Source: Planctomycetaceae bacterium
GTDB lineage: Bacteria; Planctomycetota; Planctomycetia; Planctomycetales; Planctomycetaceae
Length of the DNA: 36,520 nt
Assembly (NCBI GenBank): GCA_947476295.1
Contig: CANJQC010000048.1
Span: 1 to 36,520 of the forward strand
Reading direction: 5' to 3'
Position 1 is the stretch's first letter, and each line of letters opens with the position of its first letter. Below, one piece after another: positions 7,850 to 20,150 of this stretch. A program made the translations under genes and the position numbers. The notes under the pieces are model-generated. The model did not search any database and had not been told where the DNA came from. It saw only the letters and a list, made by a program, of their open reading frames with translations.

Positions 7850-8500
7850 CTATCGAACATTGATCTCTATGGGTTCGACTCGGTCACGATGGTCGCTGAT
7901 TGTGAACATTGCCTGTTCAAAGGACGGTGGTCCCAGCAGACTGCGGGCGTTGTTTGAAAAACCGTACGGCTCGATTGGAATACCAATCGCATTTTTCGAC
8001 AGCTTGCCGTTTCCGTCGATGTCCTGAAAAACGGCGATGGCGACTGGCTGGTTCTGCCGCAGCTCGAGAGAAAATTGACCCTGATCTCCTGTCGTGGCGA
8101 CAACGATGGTCTCACTGCTGAGCTCTGAGTTCGGAAATCCTGCCTCAGATTCAAACACAGCAACATAAACGCTGGATGCTTTTGCCGTCAAACCCTTAAC
8201 GCAGAACGTCACGTCTTGCTCGACGGGAAGCGATGATTCTGCAGAATCGATGGTTGCGGAGTCACCCGTGCTCTTATGCGTCGTCCTAGATTTATCGCTG
8301 TCTGCCTGTGGCATGACTTGCCGAAACGATGTCGCGTTCGGCAGCGAATTCTTCGCCACTGAGGCTACTGAGGCCAGCGGCTCCTTCTGTATCCGGCCTG
8401 ATTCCGCAGGCTGGAGCAGCATCGAGTCTTGGAGCAGCAGAAATCCGCTGGCGAGCGCGGTGATAGTGACCAGCGCAACGACTAAATTTGTTCTCTTCAT
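7850..8500 (-). CDS. DUF2141 domain protein, exported or membrane-anchored
   Basis: A 216-residue protein with an N-terminal hydrophobic segment (about residues 8-27), a low-complexity linker to about residue 95, and a DUF2141 domain to the end. The domain shows the family features: VYVAVFESEAGFP, then AIAVFQDIDGNGKLSKNAIG followed by IPIEPYGFSNNA and a GPPSFEQAMF ending. DUF2141 has a small beta-sandwich appearance and no assigned activity. The start lies 16 bases after the stop of the ABC permease, so it is likely the last gene of the carotenoid/ABC series. A role with the pigment or its transport is only suggested by position. Confidence 0.8.
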   Translation of the reverse strand: MKRTNLVVALVTITALASGFLLLQDSMLLQPAESGRIQKEPLASVASVAKNSLPNATSFRQVMPQADSDKSRTTHKSTGDSATIDSAESSLPVEQDVTFCVKGLTAKASSVYVAVFESEAGFPNSELSSETIVVATTGDQGQFSLELRQNQPVAIAVFQDIDGNGKLSKNAIGIPIEPYGFSNNARSLLGPPSFEQAMFTISDHRDRVEPIEINVR

Positions 8501-8516
8501 GAATACACCTTATGGG

Positions 8517-9974
8517 TCACCCACGCTTCCAGCGATTGGAAAATACCAGTGCCAACACACCAAGGACAAGTGCACTTCCCAGCAGCACTGTGACTTCCGT
8601 CTGCAGGCTGGAGACTGGTGACTGGTACCAGAAAACTTTTTGGTAACCATCCAGAGCCCATGCGTTGAAAGTCCATTTGCCAATTTCCTTCATTCGGTCG
8701 CTCATGACAAAACGAGGGATCATGCTCCCGCCAACAGCGGACATGCTCAGGATGATGACTACCGATGCGGCATTCAATTGAGCCCGCGACTTGCACAATG
8801 TTGCCATCAGCATGGCAAAGCTGGCCGTTGCCGCCGAGGTGCAGACAGTCATCACCATAAATCCATCCAGATGCTTCGATAACTGAATCTGGAAGATCAT
8901 TTCCGCCCACAGAAACATAACGCTGATCTGTACACACCCCAGCGCGAAAATCCCGAGCCACTTGCCACCGATGATGTGGAACAGTCCGGCTTTGCTGACC
9001 AAAATTCGATCGAGCGTTCCGGATTCCTCTTCTTCCAGCAAAGCGGCTGCACTACCGGTTGCGGAGAACAACAGAAACAGCACGGCAATGCCTGCCGCAT
9101 ACATCGCAATACGTGGATTCTCCTGACTCATCGCCTGTGGGTTCTCGACCAGAATGTTCATGTCGTCATCAATACCAGACAGTTCGGCAACATCCTGATC
9201 GCCTTTTTTTGCCGATTTAGGCTGGTGGAGATTCACAGATTTTGGCAGAGACCAGCGGCTGGGAACAACGGCTGCTGTTTCTCCAGCTCGGACGACGCCG
9301 TATTCGTCTGTCGCCATCAACTGATTGGTATTCGATTCAGGAAAAAAGTCTGCGGGAGTCTTTGGCGCATCAAAGAACGAACCATCTTCGGGTTTTGGCA
9401 TCTCAGAGTCAGAGTGAGTGCGTCGTGAAGAACTTTCGTCCTGAACTTCCGGAGCGCCTTTCCCGTCCTGCTGCAGTTTGAAGAGTTTCTCGGCGAAGGC
9501 CCGAGCCGCTTTTTGAGAGAAGAAGGCTTTCACAATCGACGTGACCATGGCGACAGCCATCGAATTCTGTCCGTCGGTCACCAAAGTCACCGACGATGGA
9601 TTATCTGGTGCGTCCGTCGGGACAGGGCACGGCAATTTAACCACGAGGTCGTAGCGCCCCGAATTCTGAGCGTCCTGAATGAGTGCCGATACCATAGAGT
9701 CATTGAGACTCTGTGAACTTTTGCTGTCGTTCAACGAGGTGCATTGCAGCGATGAATTGTCTTCCAGAAACGCTCGCAATTCTGTTCCTGCGTGCGATGG
9801 TTCGGCGCACACCAGACCAATTCGTAGCTTCTTGTCGCTTCCGGTGGCAATCCCATTACTAAAGATCGCGGCGAAGATACTGAAGAAGATGACTGGCATT
9901 ACGAATACCAGCAGCAACTCCAGAGGATTGTTCCGCAGACGCAGATACATGATGCGCAGGATCGTCAGGATCAT
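8517..9974 (-). CDS. ABC-2 type transporter permease
   Basis: A 485-residue membrane protein with one span near the N-terminus (about residues 18-40), a long non-membrane segment of roughly 240 residues, and five or so spans in the C-terminal half beginning at [20 protein letters not shown]. The conserved ABC-2 segment [20 protein letters not shown] and a late [14 protein letters not shown] are present. Its ATG overlaps the stop of the ATPase gene by four bases, so the two are translated together. The large loop contains an acidic, Ser/Pro-rich stretch (about 180-230) that looks disordered. ABC-2 permeases of this shape move hydrophobic or lipid-linked molecules outward; given the neighbours, a glycosylated or acylated carotenoid is a possible cargo, but this is inference. 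Confidence 0.88.
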
Positions 9975-10894
9975 TCCCGAAGACTCCTTCCGGTCAATTC
10001 CAGAAAGACATCCTGCAGGCCAAAACTCCGAACATCAATCTGGCTGGGCTCGTGATCCAGCTGTTTGAGCACGGCCAGAACCTGCGGCAGTTCTTTCATG
10101 GAGTCAATCGCGCACTTGGCGCTCGTCCGGTGTTCATCGAACGAAAACGCCGGCAGTTCCTTCAGATACGGCTGATCAAATCGCACAAAGACTCGATGCG
10201 GTCTGCCGATCGTCTGGCGGACAAGTTCGGAGAGTTTTCCGTCTGCCACAATCGTGCCATGATCGATCACGACTATTCGATGACATCGCGTCTCTACTTC
10301 GTCCAGTTGGTGCGTCGTCAGCAGCACAGCCGCCCCCTGCGCTGTGAGTTCATCCAGCATGGTGTAGATTCGTTCCCGACTCTGCGGATCAACGCCTACA
10401 GTGGGTTCATCCAGCAGCAGCACGGACGGTCGATGCAGCACGCTGCAGGCGATGTTCAATCGTCTCTGCATACCACCGGAAAGGGTTTTCACCAATGATC
10501 GGGTCCTGTCTTTCAGCGCGGCCCAGTCGAGAACTTCCTTGATGCGTTCCTGCAGCACTCGCCCCGAGACGCCTTCCAGCCGCCCGAAGACTTCCAGATT
10601 CTGCTGCACGGTCAGATCGGGATACACGGCGAGATTCTGGGGAACCAGCCCCAGGCGTGCAGTTGTCGAGGCATCCGGGTTCGCTGAAACCTGCATCCGA
10701 ATCTGCCCCGAATCCGGTTTCAGGAGGCCGCTGATACAACGAATCATGGTCGTTTTACCGGCACCATTCGGGCCAAAGAATCCCAACAGCTCTCCGGGAA
10801 ACAGCTGCAGCGAAATTCCCTTCAGCGCTTCGCGGCCACGATACTTCTTGCGCACCTGCGTCAGTGTCAGAATCGGTGTAGGCGTCTCGGTCAT
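9971..10894 (-). CDS. ABC transporter ATP-binding protein
   Basis: A 307-residue ATPase with Walker A GPNGAGKTT (41-49), Q-loop Q86, signature LSGGM (138-142), Walker B VLLLDEP (158-164) and the switch histidine H195. The domain is of the ABC-2 (CcmA/DrrA-like) exporter class. About 75 residues follow the core and resemble the small C-terminal domain of drug/lipid exporters. Start ATG overlaps the glycosyltransferase stop (ATGA) and its own stop overlaps the permease start, placing it in a coupled acyltransferase-glycosyltransferase-ATPase-permease block. Confidence 0.93.
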   Translation of the reverse strand: MTETPTPILTLTQVRKKYRGREALKGISLQLFPGELLGFFGPNGAGKTTMIRCISGLLKPDSGQIRMQVSANPDASTTARLGLVPQNLAVYPDLTVQQNLEVFGRLEGVSGRVLQERIKEVLDWAALKDRTRSLVKTLSGGMQRRLNIACSVLHRPSVLLLDEPTVGVDPQSRERIYTMLDELTAQGAAVLLTTHQLDEVETRCHRIVVIDHGTIVADGKLSELVRQTIGRPHRVFVRFDQPYLKELPAFSFDEHRTSAKCAIDSMKELPQVLAVLKQLDHEPSQIDVRSFGLQDVFLELTGRSLRE

Positions 10895-12156
10895 GATGTG
10901 GCAATTTCATAACTTCGCTGACGCCATTGAACGCTTTTCCCCAGTCGCTTCCGCAGCAGTGAGGTCCACTGAATCAGCAGGAACAGCATAATAGCCACTG
11001 GATTCAACAAACACGCCAGCCACGCTCGATCAAACCGCCAGCAGCACACGATTCTCGGCAGATAGCTCAGCACACAGGAGGTGCCTATAGGAATCACGAG
11101 AGTACTGCTGATCCACCCGGCCGCCACTGCCATAAGACACAGCACTGGCGAGACAAATGCCAGCAACATCAACGCTGTCATCACGACCAGCAAAGGCATC
11201 TTCGCAAATCCTTCTCCTGCATTCTTGAGCAACCCGGACCATGTTTCAGCGAACGACGTGTACATGCGGCAGCTCGCCAGATCCGAAGCATCGAACAAAT
11301 CCGTCATCAGGCCTGAGTGTCGAAATGCACGCGGCAGCATGATGCCATCGTGCAGTGACTGACGAATCGAACTGTGACCACCGCTGAGTTCATAGGCGTG
11401 CTTCGTAGTGATGAAAAATTGGCCGCAACCAGCCGCCGCACTGGTCATGCGAGTCCATCGCATCAAACCGAACGGCAGAAAGCACAACAGAATCAAGTGG
11501 ATCAAAGGAATCAGTAACTGTTCACCGATTGTGCCAACTCGCTGATGTGGAAATCCGCTCAACAAGTCGGCCCCGGCCTGCTGTCTCATCCGGACAGCTC
11601 GACGCAACGCATCAGGAGAGAGTGCCACGTCAGCATCCAGAAACACAAGTTCCGGAAACGATGCGTGCTGAGCCAGTTGCCAGCAGGCAAACTGTTTGCC
11701 GCTCCAGCCTGCCGGAACTGGTATTCCTCGTATCAGACGCACGTTGGCATGATCGCGGCAATAGTTCAGGACAATCGAATCTGTGCCATCCTGACTTTCA
11801 TCATCAAGCACACAGATTTCGCAGCAAATGCCTTCGCTGCTCAGCACGGAATCGATCAGGGGGCCGATCCGCAGGGCTTCATTTCGTGCGGGAATCAAAA
11901 CGGAAACGTTGTCCATTCTTGTAGGGTGGGACAAGCGCAGCGCCGGCCCACCATTGACTTCACTGCAATCTGGTGTGCCGGCGCTCGCATTGCTCGCTGG
12001 TCCCACTCGACGACTGCAACAATTCACAACCTCGGAGGCAGCAACGACTCTTGGCGACTTCCGAAAGAACAGGAGGTTGACGAGAAACATCACGAAAACG
12101 AATGCGCTGGCTCCGAACATTGACCAGATGAGGATTGATGCTGCGACATTCGTCAT
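10891..12156 (-). CDS. GT2 glycosyltransferase, CrtQ-like
   Basis: A 421-residue membrane glycosyltransferase. An N-terminal span (about 5-31) is followed by the GT-A domain: SVLIPARNEA (from 85), CVLDDESQDGT, the metal-binding VFLDADVAL, and a late GGHSSIRQSLHDGIMLPRAF segment, then three or four C-terminal spans. ATG at 12156 overlaps the acyltransferase stop by four bases; a longer frame to 12255 would run into that gene. In staphyloxanthin synthesis CrtQ glucosylates the carotenoid acid, and the same combination of neighbours here supports a carotenoid substrate. Residues about 48-80 are odd: they are encoded by a palindromic repeat element (11921-12013) lying between the span and the catalytic domain. 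It could instead be a lipid glycosyltransferase. Confidence 0.85.
   Translation of the reverse strand: MTNVAASILIWSMFGASAFVFVMFLVNLLFFRKSPRVVAASEVVNCCSRRVGPASNASAGTPDCSEVNGGPALRLSHPTRMDNVSVLIPARNEALRIGPLIDSVLSSEGICCEICVLDDESQDGTDSIVLNYCRDHANVRLIRGIPVPAGWSGKQFACWQLAQHASFPELVFLDADVALSPDALRRAVRMRQQAGADLLSGFPHQRVGTIGEQLLIPLIHLILLCFLPFGLMRWTRMTSAAAGCGQFFITTKHAYELSGGHSSIRQSLHDGIMLPRAFRHSGLMTDLFDASDLASCRMYTSFAETWSGLLKNAGEGFAKMPLLVVMTALMLLAFVSPVLCLMAVAAGWISSTLVIPIGTSCVLSYLPRIVCCWRFDRAWLACLLNPVAIMLFLLIQWTSLLRKRLGKSVQWRQRSYEIATS
11921..12013. repeat. Palindromic repeat element inside the glycosyltransferase gene
   Basis: Left arm at 11921-11952 begins GTAGGGTGGGACAAGCGCAG and continues CGCCGGCCCACC. 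The right arm, 11972 to about 12013, reverse-complements to GAGTGGGACCAGCGAGC then GAGCGCCGGCACACC. The arms share GTGGGAC, AGCG, and AGCGCCGGC-CACC around a 19-base loop. I recall this type of sequence as an intergenic repeat in planctomycete genomes. Here it lies in frame within a coding gene and adds about 32 residues. Confidence 0.7.
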
Positions 12157-12956
12157 GTGAGTTCCCCATGGACGGAACGGGCTGGCAGCACAGGTTCGTT
12201 CTGATGACGGTCCTGGAACTTCTGACCTCGAATACCGGCCGCCAGTCGCCGCCACAGGTCATAGAGGCCTCCGACACCGGCTCGGCCCACGGACAGAGTT
12301 GTGAATGCCACCGGATTGCGAGCGATCGCAAGGTCCGTCAACGATGCCTGAGTTCCAGCAAGAGCCTGTTCCAGTTCAAGCGTTCGAGTCTCTCGTTCGG
12401 CCGATAGTGCACTGCATACGACGGGCGAACCAAAGTGAACGAGCAGTTCCGGTGATCGTTCATTCCAGAACGTGTATTCGATCGCCATTGGCAATGCAGT
12501 GCCAGAGAATTCCGAGTCGACCAGATGACTCAGCCCATTCATGAACGGCGCAGATTGTCGAATGTCGTGAAATCTGCCGGCCGGTGTCAGCCAGAGGATT
12601 GTCTGCGGATTCCCGAGCAGGTCACGACTGGTCCGCAGAAATTCCTTCGCGCCGCTTGCGGTGTCTCGTTCGACTGGAAAAAAGCCCAGCCGTTCCAAAA
12701 TCGGATAACGCCTGAGTGCTTCGAGATCCATCGGAGCGGCGAATCTGCGGCCCGGAAACAGCAGATCGGTCATCAGCACGCCGGTCATCGGGTCCCACCA
12801 GCCCGGGTGATTGATGAAGCAAACGACCGGCCGCGCGGGCAATCCGGTGAGATGTTCGTGCCCGGCGACTCGGACCGCATTGAAGTTCTTCCTGACGAAC
12901 CGACGGACGTAACGACGAAAGCCCCAATTCAGAATTTTCGAGGGCAGACTCGACAT
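12153..12956 (-). CDS. PlsC-like acyltransferase, CrtO-role candidate
   Basis: A 267-residue protein of the lysophospholipid acyltransferase (PlsC) family. The catalytic HX4D box is H50-PGWW-D55 in FINHPGWWDP, followed by APMDLEALRRYPILERLGFF with VERD, and the substrate motif TILWLTPAGRFHD in place of the usual FPEGTRS. ATG at 12956 is preferred; a TTG at 12971 is the longest option. Its stop overlaps the glycosyltransferase start. In the C30 pathway of staphylococci an acyltransferase (CrtO) adds a fatty acid to the sugar of the glycosylated carotenoid, and this gene occupies the equivalent place, although CrtO itself is a different family. Confidence 0.85.
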   Translation of the reverse strand: MSSLPSKILNWGFRRYVRRFVRKNFNAVRVAGHEHLTGLPARPVVCFINHPGWWDPMTGVLMTDLLFPGRRFAAPMDLEALRRYPILERLGFFPVERDTASGAKEFLRTSRDLLGNPQTILWLTPAGRFHDIRQSAPFMNGLSHLVDSEFSGTALPMAIEYTFWNERSPELLVHFGSPVVCSALSAERETRTLELEQALAGTQASLTDLAIARNPVAFTTLSVGRAGVGGLYDLWRRLAAGIRGQKFQDRHQNEPVLPARSVHGELT

Positions 12957-12990
12957 ATCGTTTCCGTGCAAGTGTTAAGTTTCTCCAAAC

Positions 12991-13065
12991 ATCAGCCGGA
13001 ACGTGCTAGCGTCCGGTTCAACGCCCGACCCCGATCAAACCGGGTGCTAGCGCACTGCGGCTGAT
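12991..13065. repeat. Palindromic intergenic repeat (GCTAGC type)
   Basis: Arms 12991-13018 (ATCAGCCGGAACGTGCTAGC, then GTCCGGTT) and 13038-13065, whose reverse complement is ATCAGCCGCAGTGCGCTAGC then ACCCGGTT, differ at about seven of 28 positions around a 19-base loop. It fills the gap between the first desaturase and the acyltransferase, so it lies inside the probable operon. It lacks a T-run and does not look like an intrinsic terminator. A worn relative of one arm (GGCTAGCGCC ... CTGCGGCTGGTG) is at 18070-18106. Confidence 0.75.
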
Positions 13066-13093
13066 AAGACCTGTGCCATTCAGCACGCACTCG

Positions 13094-14650
13094 CTAAGCC
13101 GCTCGTTCCTTCACGTTCTTCTCCGTCCTTGTCCCGGCACTGCGGAGATCCTGATCAACAGTATCTGCCGCGATCCAGCCGGACATCATTACCATCGGCA
13201 TACCCGGACCAGGATGCGCTGATCCGCCTGCCAGATACAGTCCTTTCAGCTCTGAGACGCGATTCGCGGGTTTGAATGCCCCCATGAATCGACCATGGCT
13301 CGCGAGACCGTAAATGGCCCCGTTCAAAACGTGATACCGAGTATGGATGTCAGCGGGTGTCAGTGAATGTTCCACTTCAATCCGATCTTCAATGTCTTCC
13401 ATACCTGCGGTGGATTTGAGCTTGTTGATGATCACGTTCCGATAGGCGGGCAACATGGTCTTCCAGTCATGGTGCTTTCTCAGATACGGAGTATGCACCA
13501 GCACATACAACGCTTCGCCATCACCCGGTGCGACTTGATCCCCCGACAGCGACGGTGCGCAGACATAGCATGTCGGATCGGCTGCCGGCTCACCCTGATG
13601 GTAGATTTGCTGAAACTCAACATGAGGATCCTTGCTGAACACGAAATTGTGATGCAGGATGTGGTCATACTTTTTCCGCAGCCCCAGATACAGGACAACG
13701 CCGGAACACGCGGCTTCGAATTTTCGTCGCGACATGAATCGATCCGCGACCTTCGGCGGGAGTAGTTCCTCACAAGTTCGCACACAGTCAGAATTGGAAA
13801 CAACGGTGGCTGCTTTCAACGAAGTGCCGTTGTTCAGCGTGACGCCCGTGACATGTCCTGCCTGTGAATCAATGGACCTCACCTGCTGACCGGTGATGTA
13901 TTGCACCCCCAGTTCCCGTCCTAGTCGAACGAGAGCTTCAGGCACGGCCCGCGTGCCGCCCATCGGATACCAGATACCTTCGTTCGTCTGCATATGCGCG
14001 ATGCCGCACAGTACTGCCGGGGATGCTTCCGGAGACGAGCCGACATACTGCGTAAAATGATCAATCATCTGCGCAATTCGCTGATCCGGAATATGCGACC
14101 GCACAAGTCCGGCCACGGTCTGCCCGAATCTCAGACTCAGCACATCGCGCAGGATTTTCAGGGAAAACGACTGCTTGAAATCCATCGTGTCCGAGATTCC
14201 GCCAACGCTTTTCCAGAAGAAGAAGCGATTAGAAACTTCGTCGAGTTGCTTTGAGATTCCCATGAACTTTTCGTATCCGTCGCCGGTACGATCAGATCCT
14301 GTGAATTCCTTCAGGCTGTCCTTCATTCCTGGCAAAGATTCCACGAGGTCGAACTGAGTGTCATCCTCAAAGAAGCAGCGCCATTGAGGATCCAGCCGCA
14401 CCATCCTGAGATAGTCGTCCAGAGATCGGCCGGCTTCCGAGAACACTCGACGCAGAACGGAAGGCAACGTCAGAATCGTGGGCCCCATGTCGAAGCGATA
14501 GCCTCGGTCTTCCAGCAAAGCGGCCTTGCCGCCCAGCCATTCATTCTTTTCCACCACGGTCACTGCATAACCGCGGCCAGCCAGTGTACACGCGGTTGCC
14601 AGTCCGCCGAGGCCGCTGCCGACGACGATGACGTCCGATTGTGCCTTCAT
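13094..14650 (-). CDS. CrtI/CrtN-family carotenoid desaturase/oxidase
   Basis: A 518-residue FAD protein. The N-terminal dinucleotide-binding motif VVGSGLGGLATACTLAGRG (from residue 10) is followed by EKNEWLGGKA, YRFDMGPTILTLP and the family's C-terminal flavin motif GLYLAGGSAHPGPGMPMVMM. This is the bacterial phytoene/diapophytoene desaturase-oxidase family, which introduces double bonds in, or oxidises the end of, linear carotenes. Its ATG overlaps the aldehyde dehydrogenase stop (ATGA). Together with the second desaturase (16218-17786) it probably divides the CrtN-type desaturation and CrtP-type terminal oxidation; the sequence alone does not tell me which does which. Confidence 0.9.
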   Translation of the reverse strand: MKAQSDVIVVGSGLGGLATACTLAGRGYAVTVVEKNEWLGGKAALLEDRGYRFDMGPTILTLPSVLRRVFSEAGRSLDDYLRMVRLDPQWRCFFEDDTQFDLVESLPGMKDSLKEFTGSDRTGDGYEKFMGISKQLDEVSNRFFFWKSVGGISDTMDFKQSFSLKILRDVLSLRFGQTVAGLVRSHIPDQRIAQMIDHFTQYVGSSPEASPAVLCGIAHMQTNEGIWYPMGGTRAVPEALVRLGRELGVQYITGQQVRSIDSQAGHVTGVTLNNGTSLKAATVVSNSDCVRTCEELLPPKVADRFMSRRKFEAACSGVVLYLGLRKKYDHILHHNFVFSKDPHVEFQQIYHQGEPAADPTCYVCAPSLSGDQVAPGDGEALYVLVHTPYLRKHHDWKTMLPAYRNVIINKLKSTAGMEDIEDRIEVEHSLTPADIHTRYHVLNGAIYGLASHGRFMGAFKPANRVSELKGLYLAGGSAHPGPGMPMVMMSGWIAADTVDQDLRSAGTRTEKNVKERAA

Positions 14651-16221
14651 GATTTCCGTTCTCCCAAAGTTCTTCTAAATTTCAACTGCGCAAGAGTGGC
14701 CCTGATCATCTGCGGAACTGCCGCCAAAGTCTGCCACGGGCCGGATGCGTGTTCCAGGCGAATCAATTTTTCAAGCACATCCAAATCAAGCGGTGTTGGC
14801 GCCTGTAGATGAGGCTTGAACCACCGTCGCGCAGAGACAATGGTCTTCAACTGCGTCATCTCAAGCAGCCCCGCCTCGCCGCGTGTCATTCCATGCCCGC
14901 TTTTGCCTCGCCCGCCAAACGGAACACGCGGATCAGCGGTAGGCACGATCAAGTCGTTGATGACCACGCAGCCCGCATGAATTCTCCGAGCAAACGCCTG
15001 ACTGCGAGCCTGTGAACCAAAAACGGTCGCACTCAACACATAGGGACACTTTGTGTGATCCTGAAGCGCCTGATCTTCCGAGTGGACTCGCAGAAAAGAC
15101 AGCACTGGTGCGAAGAGATCTGACCGGGTGACGGCCATGTCAGCCGTGACTTCATCAAGGATCGCCACACCCTCCAATTCCACTTGCCCGTTGATGACGT
15201 TGATCCGACCGGCCAGCAGTTTCGCTCCGGCGGCAACCGACTCATGGATCGTTTCCACGGCAGTCCGAGCGGCATTGCCAAGCGAGACAATTTCGCTGCA
15301 CCCACGAGCGATGAGTTTTCTCAATAGGAGCGAGAGCACGCGATCAGCCATCCGGTCGCTTGCGAACACTCGTCGCGGAGCCATGCAGGTTTGACTGTGA
15401 TTGAGCGTCAATCCGAACAGCAGACAATCACTCGCCAGCTCGGGGTCGGCGTCGTCCAGAATGAAAACAGCGTCGCACCCCGAGAGTTCCATCACGGCGG
15501 GAATTACCGATTCGGCCAGCTCACGACTCACCGCCCGCCCCGTGTTCATGGACCCGGTCAGAAAGACTTTATCGACTCCACAGCGGATCGCGGTCATCGC
15601 AGCAAGCGGATCTTCGTCAAGAATCTGAATGAGATCCGCCGGCAGACCGCTTGCTTCCGCCAGATCCACAAGTGCCTGAACAGCAGCAGTGCAGTGTGCA
15701 GCGGGTTTGATCAAAACCGCGTTGCCTGCCGCCACAGCCTGCAGAATCTGGATGCCAGGCAACATCAGTGGATAGTTCGAAGGACCAATGACAAGCACGA
15801 CACCCAGAGGTTCCCGCCGCAAAGCCACACGAGTTCCCAAAAGCCACATGGGACGTGCTTTGGAGCATGGCAGCTGTTCTTTCAGGATACGCGGGGCTTC
15901 GATTTCCAAAAATCGACAGGCATCAAGCAGCGGCAGCACTTCCGCAGCCAGAGTTTCGGCAACATCAGGGCGCGGAACACTTGCCGCGATTTCACGAGGA
16001 GTCGCGGCAATCCGCAGGCGAATCGTTTTCAGGATTCCAAGACGGTCTCGCAAAGAACGCTCAGCCCACTCGGACTGTGCAGTGCGTGATCGACACAATG
16101 TGCGTTCCACGACATCGCGAGCAGAAGTGTCACCAGAATGTTCTGCTTTCGAAGCCTCCGCAGAATGCAGCCGCAAAGTTGACGTCTCCCGGAATGCGAT
16201 GCCGTTGGAAACCTGCATCAC
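14647..16221 (-). CDS. Aldehyde dehydrogenase, carotenoid AldH-type candidate
   Basis: A 524-residue NAD(P)-dependent aldehyde dehydrogenase. Seen are the cofactor segment VLVIGPSNYPLMLPGIQIL and AGNAVLIKPA, FLTGSMNTGRAV, the general base E245 in VMELSGCD, and the catalytic C279 in HSQTCMAPRRV, 34 residues apart as expected, then PFGGRGKSGHGMTRGEAG. The start is GTG 16221 or ATG 16218, both overlapping the stop of the upstream desaturase. Sandwiched between two CrtN-type genes, it most likely oxidises the terminal aldehyde of the C30 carotenoid to the acid, as AldH does for staphyloxanthin. The substrate is inferred from context. Confidence 0.9.
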   Translation of the reverse strand: MMQVSNGIAFRETSTLRLHSAEASKAEHSGDTSARDVVERTLCRSRTAQSEWAERSLRDRLGILKTIRLRIAATPREIAASVPRPDVAETLAAEVLPLLDACRFLEIEAPRILKEQLPCSKARPMWLLGTRVALRREPLGVVLVIGPSNYPLMLPGIQILQAVAAGNAVLIKPAAHCTAAVQALVDLAEASGLPADLIQILDEDPLAAMTAIRCGVDKVFLTGSMNTGRAVSRELAESVIPAVMELSGCDAVFILDDADPELASDCLLFGLTLNHSQTCMAPRRVFASDRMADRVLSLLLRKLIARGCSEIVSLGNAARTAVETIHESVAAGAKLLAGRINVINGQVELEGVAILDEVTADMAVTRSDLFAPVLSFLRVHSEDQALQDHTKCPYVLSATVFGSQARSQAFARRIHAGCVVINDLIVPTADPRVPFGGRGKSGHGMTRGEAGLLEMTQLKTIVSARRWFKPHLQAPTPLDLDVLEKLIRLEHASGPWQTLAAVPQMIRATLAQLKFRRTLGERKS

Positions 16222-17786
16222 GCGGCCCTCCGCTGAGGCAATTCTGAACCGCGGCGATCCGTCGGAATTGAAGCGAATTCCGGATACTGAAGCTGGAGAG
16301 AATCACACATCATCCGGGCGGAAATCCGCGCCGATTCATAGATCACGGGCAGCCCGCTTCCCGGATGAGTTCCACCACCGACAAGATACACCTGCTTCAG
16401 ATCGTCATACTGGTTGTGTGGCCGTAAATGGAGCATCTGTCCAAGATTGTGGGCCAGATTGAATGTGGCTCCTCGAAAAATCTGATAGCTGTTTTGCCAG
16501 TCGTCGGGCGTCACAATTTTCTCGAAGCGAATCCGACCTTCGACATCGTGCAGCCCAATTTTTTCGATCTGCCGGATGACCAGAGCCCGAAATATACGGT
16601 TCTGCTTCGCCCAGTCAATATTTGGACCCTGATGAGCGACCGGCACAAGCACGTACAATGTACTCATGCCCTTCGGTGCCAGTGTTTCGTCCGTGACACA
16701 GGCGTTTTGGACGTAGAACGATGGATCCTCAGACAGAATCTTCAGGCGATCGATCTCGTCGAGATTTTTTTCATAGTCCTGCGCAATGTAGATTGTGTGA
16801 TGGGGCAAATCGTCATATCGACCTTCGATGCCCAGATACAGCATGAATGTTGAACACGAGTACTTACTGCGTTCCAGCCGTCGATTGTTCCATCGCCGGC
16901 GAAGCTGATTCGGAACCAGTCGCTGCATGGTATTTGCAAAGTCCGCGTTGATCACCAGTGCATCAAACTCGTGATCACCGGTGTGAGATCGCAGTCCTAC
17001 CGCCTTCCGTCCATCAAAGTGCAGTTGCTCGACTGATTCACTTAGCCGGATATCGACGCCCATGTCGCGGGCGATATTAGCCATTTTTTCACTGACCGCA
17101 GCACAGCCGCCGGTCGGATGAAAGACGCCGTATTCGTATTCAAGGAAAGCCAGAATCGTGAACAGGCTTGGACACTGAAAAGGCGACATTCCCAAATACT
17201 TCGACTGAAATGAAAATGCTGTGATCAGCCGCGGATCTGAAAAGTGCTGTTGCAGATCTTCGGCAACTGACCGCCACGGACGAAGCCACGGTGCAGCTTT
17301 CAGCACCGATGGACGCAGCAGATCGAGCACGCTGCTGAAAGGTGATTCCAGAATCGGACGAAACCGGTCCAGCTTCGTGCGGTTCTCGATCATGAATCGT
17401 TCGAACGACGCGGCATCGCCGGGTGAGATGCGAGCGATCTCAGATCGCATCCTCGCAATATCCGGCGTGGCATCAATTCGCCCGCCTGCACCAAATTCCA
17501 AGCGGTACTGAGGATCTAGGCGTGTCATTGGCACGTCTTCCCAAAGATCGCGTCCAACGGATCGAAAAATCTCTTCCAGCACCCGAGGATACAGAAAGAA
17601 CGTCGGCCCAGTGTCAAAGCGGAATCCGTCTGCTTCTATGGCAGAGCACCGTCCGCCAACACGTTCCGCACGCTCGAACAACGTCACGTCCGCTCCGGCC
17701 TGCGCCATCAGCATGGCATTCGCCAGTCCGCCCGGACCAGCGCCGACAATACAGACTTTCTTCCTTTTCGCTGACATCCTTGTCAT
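16218..17786 (-). CDS. Second CrtI/CrtN/CrtP-family desaturase/oxidase
   Basis: A 522-residue FAD protein with VCIVGAGPGGLANAMLMAQ near the N-terminus, ERAERVGGRCSAI, FRFDTGPTFFLYP and the C-terminal VYLVGGGTHPGSGLPVIYES. The start ATG at 17786 has AGGAA five bases upstream; GTG 17801 and ATG 17777 are alternatives. It is clearly a relative of the 13094-14650 protein but diverged throughout. The pair would carry out desaturation of squalene or dehydrosqualene and oxidation of a terminal methyl group. Its gene opens the coupled desaturase-dehydrogenase-desaturase block, about 330 bases downstream of the synthase gene. Confidence 0.9.
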   Translation of the reverse strand: MTRMSAKRKKVCIVGAGPGGLANAMLMAQAGADVTLFERAERVGGRCSAIEADGFRFDTGPTFFLYPRVLEEIFRSVGRDLWEDVPMTRLDPQYRLEFGAGGRIDATPDIARMRSEIARISPGDAASFERFMIENRTKLDRFRPILESPFSSVLDLLRPSVLKAAPWLRPWRSVAEDLQQHFSDPRLITAFSFQSKYLGMSPFQCPSLFTILAFLEYEYGVFHPTGGCAAVSEKMANIARDMGVDIRLSESVEQLHFDGRKAVGLRSHTGDHEFDALVINADFANTMQRLVPNQLRRRWNNRRLERSKYSCSTFMLYLGIEGRYDDLPHHTIYIAQDYEKNLDEIDRLKILSEDPSFYVQNACVTDETLAPKGMSTLYVLVPVAHQGPNIDWAKQNRIFRALVIRQIEKIGLHDVEGRIRFEKIVTPDDWQNSYQIFRGATFNLAHNLGQMLHLRPHNQYDDLKQVYLVGGGTHPGSGLPVIYESARISARMMCDSLQLQYPEFASIPTDRRGSELPQRRAA

Positions 17787-17916
17787 CGCGTTTCCTGTCA
17801 CTTCGGGAAATTGACCGAGAACGGCAGATTATGCCGATTTCTGAAAACTCATACAATGCGAATCCGCGCCTGCGGAAATAGCAAAACGGTTGGGTAAGTG
17901 AATTGGGCCGAAGACG

Positions 17917-18050
17917 CTTATACTCCACGCGGCCAGAAATGAGTCCGGCGAGCGGAGCGGAGTGAGCCCAATGGTACGTCGTTTTTGGACCGGCAAGCTG
18001 ACGCATGCCGCTCACCAATTGTCTCGCTCATTACCGCGCGGAGTATAACC
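17917..18050. repeat. 134-base inverted-repeat element, MITE-like
   Basis: The ends carry matching inverted repeats: left TTATACTCCACGCGG (17918-17932) followed by AATGAG (17938-17943), right, read on the minus strand, TTATACTCCGCGCGG followed by AATGAG. About 21 of 22 aligned bases agree apart from a small gap. The interior is unique and encodes nothing evident. It lies in the 325-base gap between the synthase and the second desaturase. The structure suits a small non-autonomous mobile element or folded RNA element; no flanking duplication was confirmed. Confidence 0.6.
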
Positions 18051-18111
18051 GATTTCTTGCTGTCGAATCGGCTAGCGCCTTAGGCTCAATGCTCTGCGGC
18101 TGGTGAAATCA

Positions 18112-19071
18112 TCAGACAGGCAGGACAATGGGCTCAGATTTCACTGCCGAGAGTATTCGCATCACTTCGTCACGAGTCAGCTTGCAGCCAGCCCCATTGC
18201 TTCGGAGTCTGCTTAACGAGCCCTCCGCCAGAAAACAAAGAAACCGACAGAAAAGCAGGATGTCGGTCGGGAAATCGTTCTTTTCAAGTAGGCTTATGTA
18301 CACGAGAGCGTCTTCGCGGGCAGCATAAGCCAGCTGGAAGACGCTTTCGCGAGAAGTCCCGATCGGAATAAAGACTCGACCACTGGTTGCATCACGATCG
18401 GCATCTTTGAGTATATTTGTCAGCTGAAGGAATTCACCAAAGCCGACCGAAAGTTGCCGGAGTTCTTTCAGTGCGACAGCCCCTGTGGGATGATGAAAAA
18501 CGAAAATGTCCGTCAGCAGTTCTCCCACAATCCCCGCCACGACATAGCAATAAAGTCGAAGATCACCCACCGTCTGAATCCGAATCTGCTCCCGGGAACT
18601 CATTGATGCATCAATAAAACGGATCATGCCACTGATCGTCGAAGCCAATGCGTTGCGAATCTCATTCGCCACTGTTGATGGCAATTCGCCAAACAGGGCC
18701 ATGAGCCTCGGAACTTGAAGCAGAAGTCTTTCCGTTGGACTCTCTGTGGGCCACAGACCTCCAAAGCTCATCGAAGCGGCACCCGAGTACTCGCTGCTTC
18801 GAGTCGTGTCGACTGCCGCTTTGTTCAGGCATGTTCTCATGGCAGTGAGTAATGAAATCTTCGTCACTGCGTCGCCTTCCGGGGCGTCCTCGATGCTGTC
18901 CGCAACTCGGAAGAGCAGATAACTGAGGCCGATGTGCCGCCGCCGCTCTGCGGTGAGCAAAGGAATCGCCAAGGCGAATGTTCGACTGGTTCCCTGGAGC
19001 AAATCGTCTATAAAGCGGTCATCATGATGGAGACAATCTACTGCTGTTGATGTTTGCACCACGGTATCCAT
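18112..19071 (-). CDS. Squalene/phytoene synthase family protein
   Basis: A 319-residue head-to-head prenyl synthase. The first aspartate-rich motif is D58-S-I-E-D62 in RVADSIEDAPEG, the second D223-A-D-R-D227 in LQLTNILKDADRDATSGRV, with YCYVVAGIVGELLTDIF at 174-190. The DSIED form and YCYVVAG motif recall bacterial/eukaryotic squalene synthases more than phytoene synthases or HpnC/HpnD. It should condense two farnesyl diphosphates to squalene or dehydrosqualene, the C30 skeleton for the downstream desaturases. The start is uncertain: ATG 19071 has GGGGA almost adjacent; GTG 19080 and TTG 19083 are possible. It is divergent from ispH. Confidence 0.88.
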   Translation of the reverse strand: MDTVVQTSTAVDCLHHDDRFIDDLLQGTSRTFALAIPLLTAERRRHIGLSYLLFRVADSIEDAPEGDAVTKISLLTAMRTCLNKAAVDTTRSSEYSGAASMSFGGLWPTESPTERLLLQVPRLMALFGELPSTVANEIRNALASTISGMIRFIDASMSSREQIRIQTVGDLRLYCYVVAGIVGELLTDIFVFHHPTGAVALKELRQLSVGFGEFLQLTNILKDADRDATSGRVFIPIGTSRESVFQLAYAAREDALVYISLLEKNDFPTDILLFCRFLCFLAEGSLSRLRSNGAGCKLTRDEVMRILSAVKSEPIVLPV

Positions 19072-19141
19072 TCCCCGCACCAACCACTGAAGAACTCAGA
19101 GACTCGGAACTCCCCCCCTCATCATAATGGCTGTGGTTCAA

Positions 19142-19193: not shown

Positions 19194-20150
19194 ATGAACG
19201 TTTTACTTGCCAGCCCTCGTGGATTCTGTGCAGGCGTGGATATGGCCATCGAATGCCTAGATGAGACAATTCGTTGCATCGGGCCGAAAATCTTTGTCTA
19301 CCACGAAATTGTCCACAACAAGATCGTGGTCGATCGCTTTGAGAAATTAGGCGTCACCTTTGTTGAGACTCTCGACGAAGTGCCCCACGGCAGCATTCTG
19401 GTGTTCAGTGCCCACGGTGTCTCGCCTGAAGTGCGTCGCGCGGCTCGCGCACGAAGGCTGCAGACAATTGATGCCACTTGCCCGCTGGTGTCCAAAGTCC
19501 ATCTCGAGGCCATTCGGTACGCCCGTCAGGGTTATGATATCATTTTAATTGGCCACGAAAGCCATGATGAAATCATTGGCACAATGGGAGAAGCTCCAGA
19601 AAGCATGGTTCTCGTCGAGACGCCCGAAGACGTCGAATTGCTTTCGTTCGCCAGCAGTCACAAACTTGCCTATTTGACGCAAACAACGCTGAGTCTGGAC
19701 GAAGCCAACGCGGTAATTCAAAGGTTGCGTCAGCGATATCCGCACATCGAATCACCAGCGAAGGAGGACATTTGTTACGCCACAACGAATCGTCAGGATG
19801 CGATCAAAGCGATTCTGGAATCCGCAGATGTCCTGATCGTACTCGGCAGCAAAAATAGCTCCAACAGCCGCCGACTGATGGAGAAAGGTCTCTCGCAGGG
19901 TGTTCCAAGCTACCTGGTTGATGATGTGGGCGAACTTCAATTGGAATGGTTCACGAACGTCGAGACCGTTGTGGTGACCGCCGGGGCGAGTGCGCCCGAG
20001 TTGGTAGTGACGGAGTGTATCAATTATCTGAAGCAGCACTTCGACGCTTCGATATCCGATGCAGTACTTCGTAAAGAGAACGTGCGTTTCCCGTTGCCTC
20101 GAGAGTTGCAGACGCTCCGAAATGGCGGAACAATTTCTGCAGCCGGATGA
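19194..20150 (+). CDS. ispH: 4-hydroxy-3-methylbut-2-enyl diphosphate reductase
   Basis: A 318-residue iron-sulfur reductase catalysing the last step of the MEP pathway, HMBPP to IPP and DMAPP. The three cluster cysteines are C12 (SPRGFCAGV), C96 (DATCPLV) and C194 (DICYATTNRQ). Substrate residues are present as H41 (VYHEIVHN), H74 (SAHGVSP), H124/E126-region (GHESHDEIIGT), and S222-S223-N224-S225 (KNSSNS). Length is normal for the family. It is divergent from the synthase gene with about 120 bases between, and 10 bases upstream of the FabZ-like gene, so it probably supports isoprenoid supply to the pigment pathway besides its housekeeping role. Confidence 0.96.
   Translation: MNVLLASPRGFCAGVDMAIECLDETIRCIGPKIFVYHEIVHNKIVVDRFEKLGVTFVETLDEVPHGSILVFSAHGVSPEVRRAARARRLQTIDATCPLVSKVHLEAIRYARQGYDIILIGHESHDEIIGTMGEAPESMVLVETPEDVELLSFASSHKLAYLTQTTLSLDEANAVIQRLRQRYPHIESPAKEDICYATTNRQDAIKAILESADVLIVLGSKNSSNSRRLMEKGLSQGVPSYLVDDVGELQLEWFTNVETVVVTAGASAPELVVTECINYLKQHFDASISDAVLRKENVRFPLPRELQTLRNGGTISAAG

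What the first reader, a model, noticed from the sequence alone, without database searches (positions are those of the whole stretch)
8517..19071. C30 carotenoid gene set co-translated with an ABC-2 exporter
A synthase, two CrtN-type proteins and an aldehyde dehydrogenase are followed by an acyltransferase, glycosyltransferase, ATPase and permease. Within each block the genes overlap by four bases. The content matches the staphyloxanthin logic (synthase, desaturase, oxidase, AldH, glycosyl- and acyltransferase) but adds a dedicated transporter joined to the decorating enzymes. In a cell with two membranes this could export a glycosylated, acylated carotenoid to the outer membrane, which I do not recall being described. 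The family calls are seen in sequence; the transport role is inference.
Basis: partly seen in the sequence, partly recalled or inferred. Interest (0 to 1): 0.7.

Follow-up and report, generated by a model that had tools for sequence, protein, structure and literature searches.

The report
Carotenoid operon with built-in exporter module
A pigment-making gene cluster in a planctomycete bacterium carries its own membrane pump plus a small protein that probably faces the periplasm, and a similar pump-plus-protein unit sits in a different pigment cluster in another phylum, which makes it a good candidate for how some bacteria move carotenoids out of the inner membrane.

Summary
The gene set is real. 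Four-base overlaps are confirmed at five junctions; gaps of 310 and 122 bp remain.

In its orthologous clade the pair does travel with crt genes: 17 of 17 informative genomes, with DUF2141 after the permease in 16 of 17. It is optional, though: 14 of 29 genomes with this CrtN have it. The wider permease family is mostly not crt-linked.

The strongest new evidence is recurrence: a separate permease lineage in Acidobacteriota (five loci) sits with DUF2141 among C40 genes (CrtY, CrtI, CrtB), with no glycosyl- or acyltransferase recognised beside it. So carotenoid export is a well-supported hypothesis, while 'glycosylated, acylated' and 'outer membrane' are unproven. DUF2141 also neighbours other exporters, suggesting a general accessory. 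Transport itself is inference.

The parts
18112..19083 (-). Squalene-synthase-like enzyme (only SQS_PSY gene found in the genome)
   Evidence: PF00494 109 bits; TIGR01559 81 bits, below its cut-off of 287; one match in G000; solved structures: squalene synthases E 8e-12 to 6.5e-7, dehydrosqualene synthase E 9.5e-7 at best
16218..17801 (-). CrtN-like carotenoid desaturase (CRTa); alternative ATG start at 17786
   Evidence: TIGR02734 535 bits; 63% identical to the ortholog in L063 (G020)
14647..16221 (-). Aldehyde dehydrogenase, expected to oxidise the terminal aldehyde to the acid
   Evidence: PF00171 251 bits; role inferred from the C30 pathway
13094..14650 (-). Second CrtN-like protein (CRTb), expected terminal-methyl oxidase
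   Evidence: TIGR02734 389 bits; role inferred
12991..13065 (.). 28-nt inverted repeat (79% complementary) with 19-nt loop between the two gene blocks
   Evidence: RNA fold of 12972-13093 -48.9 kcal/mol, z -2.5, 2 of 200 shuffles as stable
12153..12971 (-). Acyltransferase (PF01553)
   Evidence: 29 bits against a 23-bit cut-off
10891..12156 (-). GT2 glycosyltransferase, HpnB/CruG-like, taken from the ATG at 12156 (longest ORF starts at 12255)
   Evidence: PF00535 60 bits; TIGR03469 HpnB 134 bits and CruG 99 bits, both below cut-off; ATGA junction in the sequence
9971..10894 (-). ABC ATPase of the exporter; Walker A, LSGGM signature, Walker B and H-loop visible in the translation
   Evidence: PF00005 118 bits; DrrA 242 and NodI 213 bits, below cut-offs; dN/dS 0.05
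8517..9974 (-). ABC-2 permease: one hydrophobic segment, a long polar region, then a membrane block
   Evidence: PF12698 99 bits; hydropathy; 4-base overlap with the ATPase
7850..8500 (-). DUF2141 protein with an N-terminal hydrophobic segment; proposed third part of the export unit
   Evidence: PF09912 86 bits; follows the permease in 16 of 17 informative clade genomes; predicted beta-sandwich at about residues 92-216, mostly pLDDT near or over 90
19194..20150 (+). ispH (lytB), divergent neighbour of the operon; isoprenoid precursor supply
   Evidence: PF02401 304 bits; same arrangement in L040, L043, L045 and L080

Best explanation
The locus makes a C30 carotenoid acid from farnesyl diphosphate through a squalene-type intermediate, then glycosylates and acylates it, and carries a dedicated export unit of three proteins: ABC ATPase, ABC-2 permease and a DUF2141 protein that is anchored by its N-terminus and probably faces the periplasm. 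Most likely the ATPase and permease move the finished carotenoid from the cytoplasmic leaflet to the periplasmic face, and DUF2141 assists there, perhaps by binding the permease or the head group. Shown: gene content, order, overlaps, conservation, purifying selection, repeated association with two carotenoid pathway types. Inferred: that the pair transports anything, that the substrate is the carotenoid, the C30 product itself (by orthology), the role and side of DUF2141, and any onward step to the outer membrane.
For: Orthologous pair with crt genes in 17 of 17 informative genomes, ATPase/permease overlap in 17 of 17 clade loci and GT/ATPase overlap scored in 12 of 17. DUF2141 in 14 of 15 genomes with the clade permease or its remnant against 6 of 105 others among 120 genomes (Fisher p 8e-13, relatedness not corrected). 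The crt-linked permeases (planctomycete clade; Acidobacteriota plus Botrimarina) are not one clade: AU p 0.001. Acidobacterial order CrtY-CrtI-CrtB-ATPase-permease-DUF2141-amine oxidase in L130, L163, L164, with permease/DUF2141 overlapping by 4 bases in these three. Further ABC pairs beside C30 genes: G087, in the operon (ATPase 39% identical), and G116 (L054). In G024 no CrtN or second CrtN ortholog was found and the permease is only a C-terminal remnant.
Against: 15 of 29 genomes with the CrtN ortholog lack the clade pair, P. limnophila included. 31 of 36 informative members of the wider permease family are not crt-linked, among them Rhodopirellula rubra (L156), a species with C40 carotenoids (PMC12078418 passage). 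DUF2141 also sits beside HlyD-MacB and HlyD-RND exporters and stays intact in G024 without pair or crt genes, so it is not carotenoid-specific. G088 has the pair but no DUF2141. DUF2141 is predicted as a beta-sandwich with only middling matches, mostly starch-binding domains; no lipid-carrier family stands out among the rows shown. The permease model is poor (pLDDT 53). No transport or localisation data exist here.
Confidence: 0.5

Rival explanations
1. Block 2 (acyltransferase, GT, ATPase, permease, DUF2141) makes and exports a separate acylated glycolipid that is merely co-regulated with the carotenoid.
For: GT and ATPase overlap by 4 bases, a hairpin separates the blocks, GT resembles hopanoid-associated HpnB, ATPase resembles NodI and DrrA.
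Against: Acyltransferase and GT homologs also follow the C30 genes in L065 and L068, which show no pair; CRTb and acyltransferase overlap by 4 bases in L047-L049; the acidobacterial pair sits among crt genes with no GT or acyltransferase recognised.
Confidence: 0.2
2. The pair is an efflux or repair pump, for instance removing oxidised carotenoid fragments or a toxic aldehyde intermediate, not a placement system.
For: The ATPase is closest to DrrA among NCBIfam models (242 bits, below the cut-off of 312).
Against: No aldehyde dehydrogenase was recognised beside the acidobacterial pair (window AldH by tblastn; Pfam on L130 neighbours); close linkage to DUF2141 suggests an envelope process.
Confidence: 0.12
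3. The pair is a passenger: co-transcribed but functionally unrelated, kept together by descent.
For: Most informative members of the wider permease family live elsewhere; 15 of 29 genomes with the CrtN lack the clade pair.
Against: At least two, perhaps three, separate crt associations in the family, a further distant pair in G087, and 4-base overlaps; a rough chance estimate for 3 or more in 39 loci is 5e-4 (0.4% per locus is my assumption, and 39 is 32 unlinked plus 7 linked non-clade loci).
Confidence: 0.1

Closest known systems
C30 squalene-route carotenoid cluster of Planctopirus limnophila (Santana-Molina 2022; paper not held, known through passages of PMC11958385 and PMC12078418)
   Same: CrtN, AldH, second CrtN, acyltransferase in the same order (L063)
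Staphyloxanthin cluster (recalled)
   Same: Synthase, two CrtN-type enzymes, AldH, GT, acyltransferase by role
   Different: Synthase slightly nearer to squalene synthases than CrtM; acyltransferase matched only PF01553; staphyloxanthin has no ABC pair as far as I recall
Polyene pigment cluster of Lysobacter enzymogenes (PMC3691225, passages read)
   Same: Pigment genes clustered with exporters and a carrier linked by the authors to outer-membrane location
   Different: Polyketide pigment; whether any exporter is of the ABC-2 type was not looked up
crtE-cg0722-crtB operon of Corynebacterium glutamicum (PMC3598387, passages read)
   Same: A putative membrane protein co-transcribed with carotenoid genes
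   Different: Single membrane protein in the gene list given; function not stated in the passages
NodIJ / DrrAB ABC-2 exporters
   Same: ATPase and ABC-2 permease architecture
   Different: NodI and DrrA model cut-offs not reached; unrelated neighbourhood
DUF2141 beside crtG in Sphingomonadales and Qipengyuania (PMC5989583, PMC9241875, passages read)
   Same: DUF2141 gene next to a carotenoid gene, function unknown
   Different: The word 'transporter' does not occur in the main text of PMC5989583

Membership tests
C30 carotenoid cluster of the planctomycete type | Two CrtN-type enzymes with AldH, in one operon | tested here: met
   CrtN orthologs about 60-65% identical in the other Planctomycetaceae
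C30 carotenoid cluster of the planctomycete type | Squalene supplied by an HpnC/HpnD pair | tested here: not met
   One SQS_PSY gene in the genome, inside the cluster; 11 of 13 clade genomes tested are like this, G034 and G039 have two synthases elsewhere. HpnE not tested
C30 carotenoid cluster of the planctomycete type | Product is a C30 carotenoid | not testable with these tools
   Inferred by orthology only
Staphyloxanthin cluster | CrtM-type dehydrosqualene synthase | tested here: inconclusive
   PDB matches: squalene synthases E 8e-12 to 6.5e-7, dehydrosqualene synthase E 9.5e-7 and weaker
Staphyloxanthin cluster | CrtQ-type glycosyltransferase and CrtO-type acyltransferase | tested here: inconclusive
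   GT2 with HpnB/CruG nearest; acyltransferase matches only PF01553; no direct comparison with CrtQ or CrtO made
ABC-2 exporter | ATPase with ABC motifs plus ABC-2 permease, co-encoded | tested here: met
   transport direction not tested
NodIJ or DrrAB | NCBIfam model cut-offs for NodI or DrrA | tested here: not met
   213 of 521 and 242 of 312 bits
DUF2141 | PF09912 match above its cut-off | tested here: met
   85.7 bits against 24.4
Dedicated pigment-to-outer-membrane system | Pigment found in the outer membrane, dependent on the transporter | not testable with these tools
   Needs mutants and fractionation

The most novel reading that the evidence does not exclude
ATPase, ABC-2 permease and DUF2141 form a carotenoid-export unit that has joined separate carotenoid pathways, C30 in Planctomycetota and cyclic C40 in Acidobacteriota, and DUF2141 is a general periplasmic accessory of envelope exporters.
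Probability: 0.4. Interest if true: 0.75.

Novelty: new variant of a known kind. Interest (0 to 1): 0.55.

Why it matters
Among the listings of my paper searches (titles and abstract starts seen, few papers opened) nothing described an exporter for carotenoids in bacteria with two membranes. A conserved three-gene unit inside carotenoid operons gives a concrete, deletable candidate, and it gives DUF2141, named in three papers of the library, a testable role. The key paper on planctomycete C30 carotenoids was not held, so it may already mention these neighbours.

Tried and rejected

Uninformative for crt linkage: L095/G088 (contig ends in the GT). G118 (L097) is counted as linked through its other contig (L079). 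Uninformative for DUF2141: L090 (0.75 kb from mid-permease to contig end); negative: G088. L089 and L090 are near copies. One search kept 80 of 114 relatives. The '31 of 36' counts a crt hit at any flank length but an absence only with over 7 kb on both sides; with that rule for both it is 4 crt-linked of 35. The 64 non-clade loci include L125, a clade remnant, as uninformative. A crt hit meant over 120 bits by tblastn with window or L130 proteins within 10 kb, so divergent crt genes could be missed. L125 and L079 (and L168) were left out of the trees. In one search, 'overlap' means that an in-frame start codon exists at that offset; GT/ATPase read so in 12 of 17 clade loci with both genes: L046, L085 and L096 were mis-scored through a split match (L046 does overlap by the coordinates), L050 has a 5-base gap, L051 scored -37 with a GT cut by the contig end. 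G118 shows a second, contig-end DUF2141 piece.
Full report
What is there. The window is a whole contig (G000:C48) of a 5.99 Mb draft genome, 99% complete. Its nearest relatives named are planctomycete MAGs; one same-family genome (G020) has a contig of 5,423,075 bases, which equals the published P. limnophilus total of 5,460,085 minus its plasmid of 37,010 (PMC3035269, passages; that paper prints another chromosome length), so I read it as Planctopirus limnophila and the family as Planctomycetaceae. The minus-strand operon reads synthase, CrtN-like, AldH, CrtN-like, acyltransferase, GT, ABC ATPase, ABC-2 permease, DUF2141.

How tightly it is built. Overlaps of four bases join CrtN/AldH/CrtN and GT/ATPase/permease, and acyltransferase/GT if the GT begins at the ATG at 12156. 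The ATPase/permease overlap is possible in 17 of 17 clade loci with both genes. Between the blocks lie 122 bp with a 28-nt inverted repeat that folds to a strong hairpin; in L047, L048 and L049 the two blocks overlap by four bases instead, so they can be one translational unit. All nine genes evolve under purifying selection between the window and L040 (dN/dS 0.05 for the ATPase, 0.21 for the permease, 0.33 for DUF2141).

Does the pair always travel with crt genes? In the orthologous clade, yes. Of 18 distinct genomes (window, L082-L097, G034), 17 are informative and all 17 have crt genes upstream; DUF2141 follows in 16 of 17 informative ones, the exception being G088. Among 120 genomes of the order, 29 have the CrtN ortholog and 15 have the clade permease or a remnant; 14 have both. 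The one permease genome without crt genes, G024, keeps only about the last 138 permease codons next to an intact DUF2141, with some 5 kb of contig left upstream: the rest of the cluster looks lost together.

But it is not needed for the pathway genes. The other 15 CrtN genomes were looked at: most carry CrtN-AldH-CrtN, some with acyltransferase and a few with GT, without the clade pair, though several contigs are short and G030 and G048 showed only the CrtN. Eight of them were tested for synthases: all eight have two adjacent SQS_PSY genes elsewhere (G087 a third), as expected for HpnC/HpnD, whereas 11 of 13 clade genomes tested have a single divergent synthase inside the cluster. P. limnophila, where deletion of hpnD abolished carotenoid formation (PMC11958385, passages), is of the first kind. 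So exporter and in-cluster synthase mark a distinct sub-type, although G034 and G039 have the exporter without that synthase.

A wider family, and a second carotenoid link. Permease relatives, mostly 30-54% identical over the best segment, are common in Pirellulaceae and occur in Acidobacteriota and Eisenbacteria. Of 64 non-clade loci, 36 are informative: 31 have no crt gene found within 10 kb and 5 do (4 of 35 by the stricter rule in Tried and rejected). The recurrent other neighbours that I annotated show no carotenoid theme. Three of the five are Acidobacteriota, and two more were found in the order of L130 (37 genomes searched, 6 matching, 3 of these crt-linked). L130, L163 and L164 read CrtY-CrtI-CrtB-ATPase-permease-DUF2141-amine oxidase; L131 is cut by its contig ends (CrtI to DUF2141), and in L127 ATPase-permease-DUF2141-oxidase faces CrtB-CrtI-CrtY on the other strand. 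CrtY of L130 is above its curated cut-off (484 against 215 bits), so this is a cyclic C40 pathway; its CrtB is best but below its cut-off (380 of 480), and the last enzyme is HpnE-like, below cut-off. Permease and DUF2141 overlap by four bases in the three complete operons. No glycosyl- or acyltransferase was recognised beside these genes (not every neighbour was scanned). The other two are L139 (Botrimarina hoheduenensis, the pair convergent with a C30 cluster) and L123 (a CrtN with the pair, no DUF2141).

Is this one event? In a tree of 87 permeases the planctomycete clade (18 rows, support 100) and the acidobacterial clade (5 rows, 99; with L139, 84) stand apart, and forcing clade, Acidobacteriota and L139 together is rejected (AU p 0.001; quick tree, long branches present, group named after seeing the tree). 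Repeated recruitment, or an old carotenoid role with many losses, both fit; passenger status fits less well. In G087 a more distant pair (ATPase 39%) has a start four bases inside the second CrtN gene.

Judgement. The exporter belongs to the carotenoid operon, and carotenoid (or carotenoid-dependent) export is the most likely role, at about 0.5. Outer-membrane delivery and dependence on glycosylation and acylation are not established, and the second is weakened by the acidobacterial operon. Clusters that pair pigment genes with transport genes are known for polyene pigments (PMC3691225, passages) and a membrane protein is co-transcribed with carotenoid genes in C. glutamicum (PMC3598387, passages), so the principle is known and the variant is new as far as my searches reach (listings mostly, and the central paper not held).

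Noticed in passing
L169:4426-8118; L170:7545-12975; L171:7717-13143; L172:3192-7277; L173:7405-11411: DUF2141 genes beside HlyD-FtsX/MacB-ABC or HlyD-AcrB exporters in relatives; hints that DUF2141 is a general exporter accessory.
   Followed up: partly
L069:11298-15114: An ABC-2 permease, PqiA and MlaD (MCE) gene run divergently beside the C30 crt genes of G041: possibly another envelope lipid-transport partner.
   Followed up: no
window:19084-20150; L040, L043, L045, L080: ispH lies divergent to the synthase gene in several clade loci, joining isoprenoid precursor supply to pigment genes.
   Followed up: no
window:18112-19083: The single divergent squalene-synthase-like gene appears to replace the HpnC/HpnD-like pair seen in related genomes; its last third does not match the Pfam model.
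   Followed up: partly
L125:5166-6217 (G024): Remnant of the permease C-terminus next to intact DUF2141 in a genome where neither CrtN ortholog was found: a natural loss of the cluster.
   Followed up: partly
L082: The record is titled Candidatus Kuenenia stuttgartiensis but is close to the window (81-97% for the operon proteins, DUF2141 64%), so the label is probably wrong.
   Followed up: no
window:28529-33251: A MotA/ExbB-domain gene overlaps by 4 bases a 710-aa gene, which overlaps by 1 base a 386-aa gene; the last two have no Pfam match.
   Followed up: no
window:17910-18056: A 23-nt inverted repeat, arms 101 nt apart, in the 310-bp gap between synthase and CrtN.
   Followed up: no
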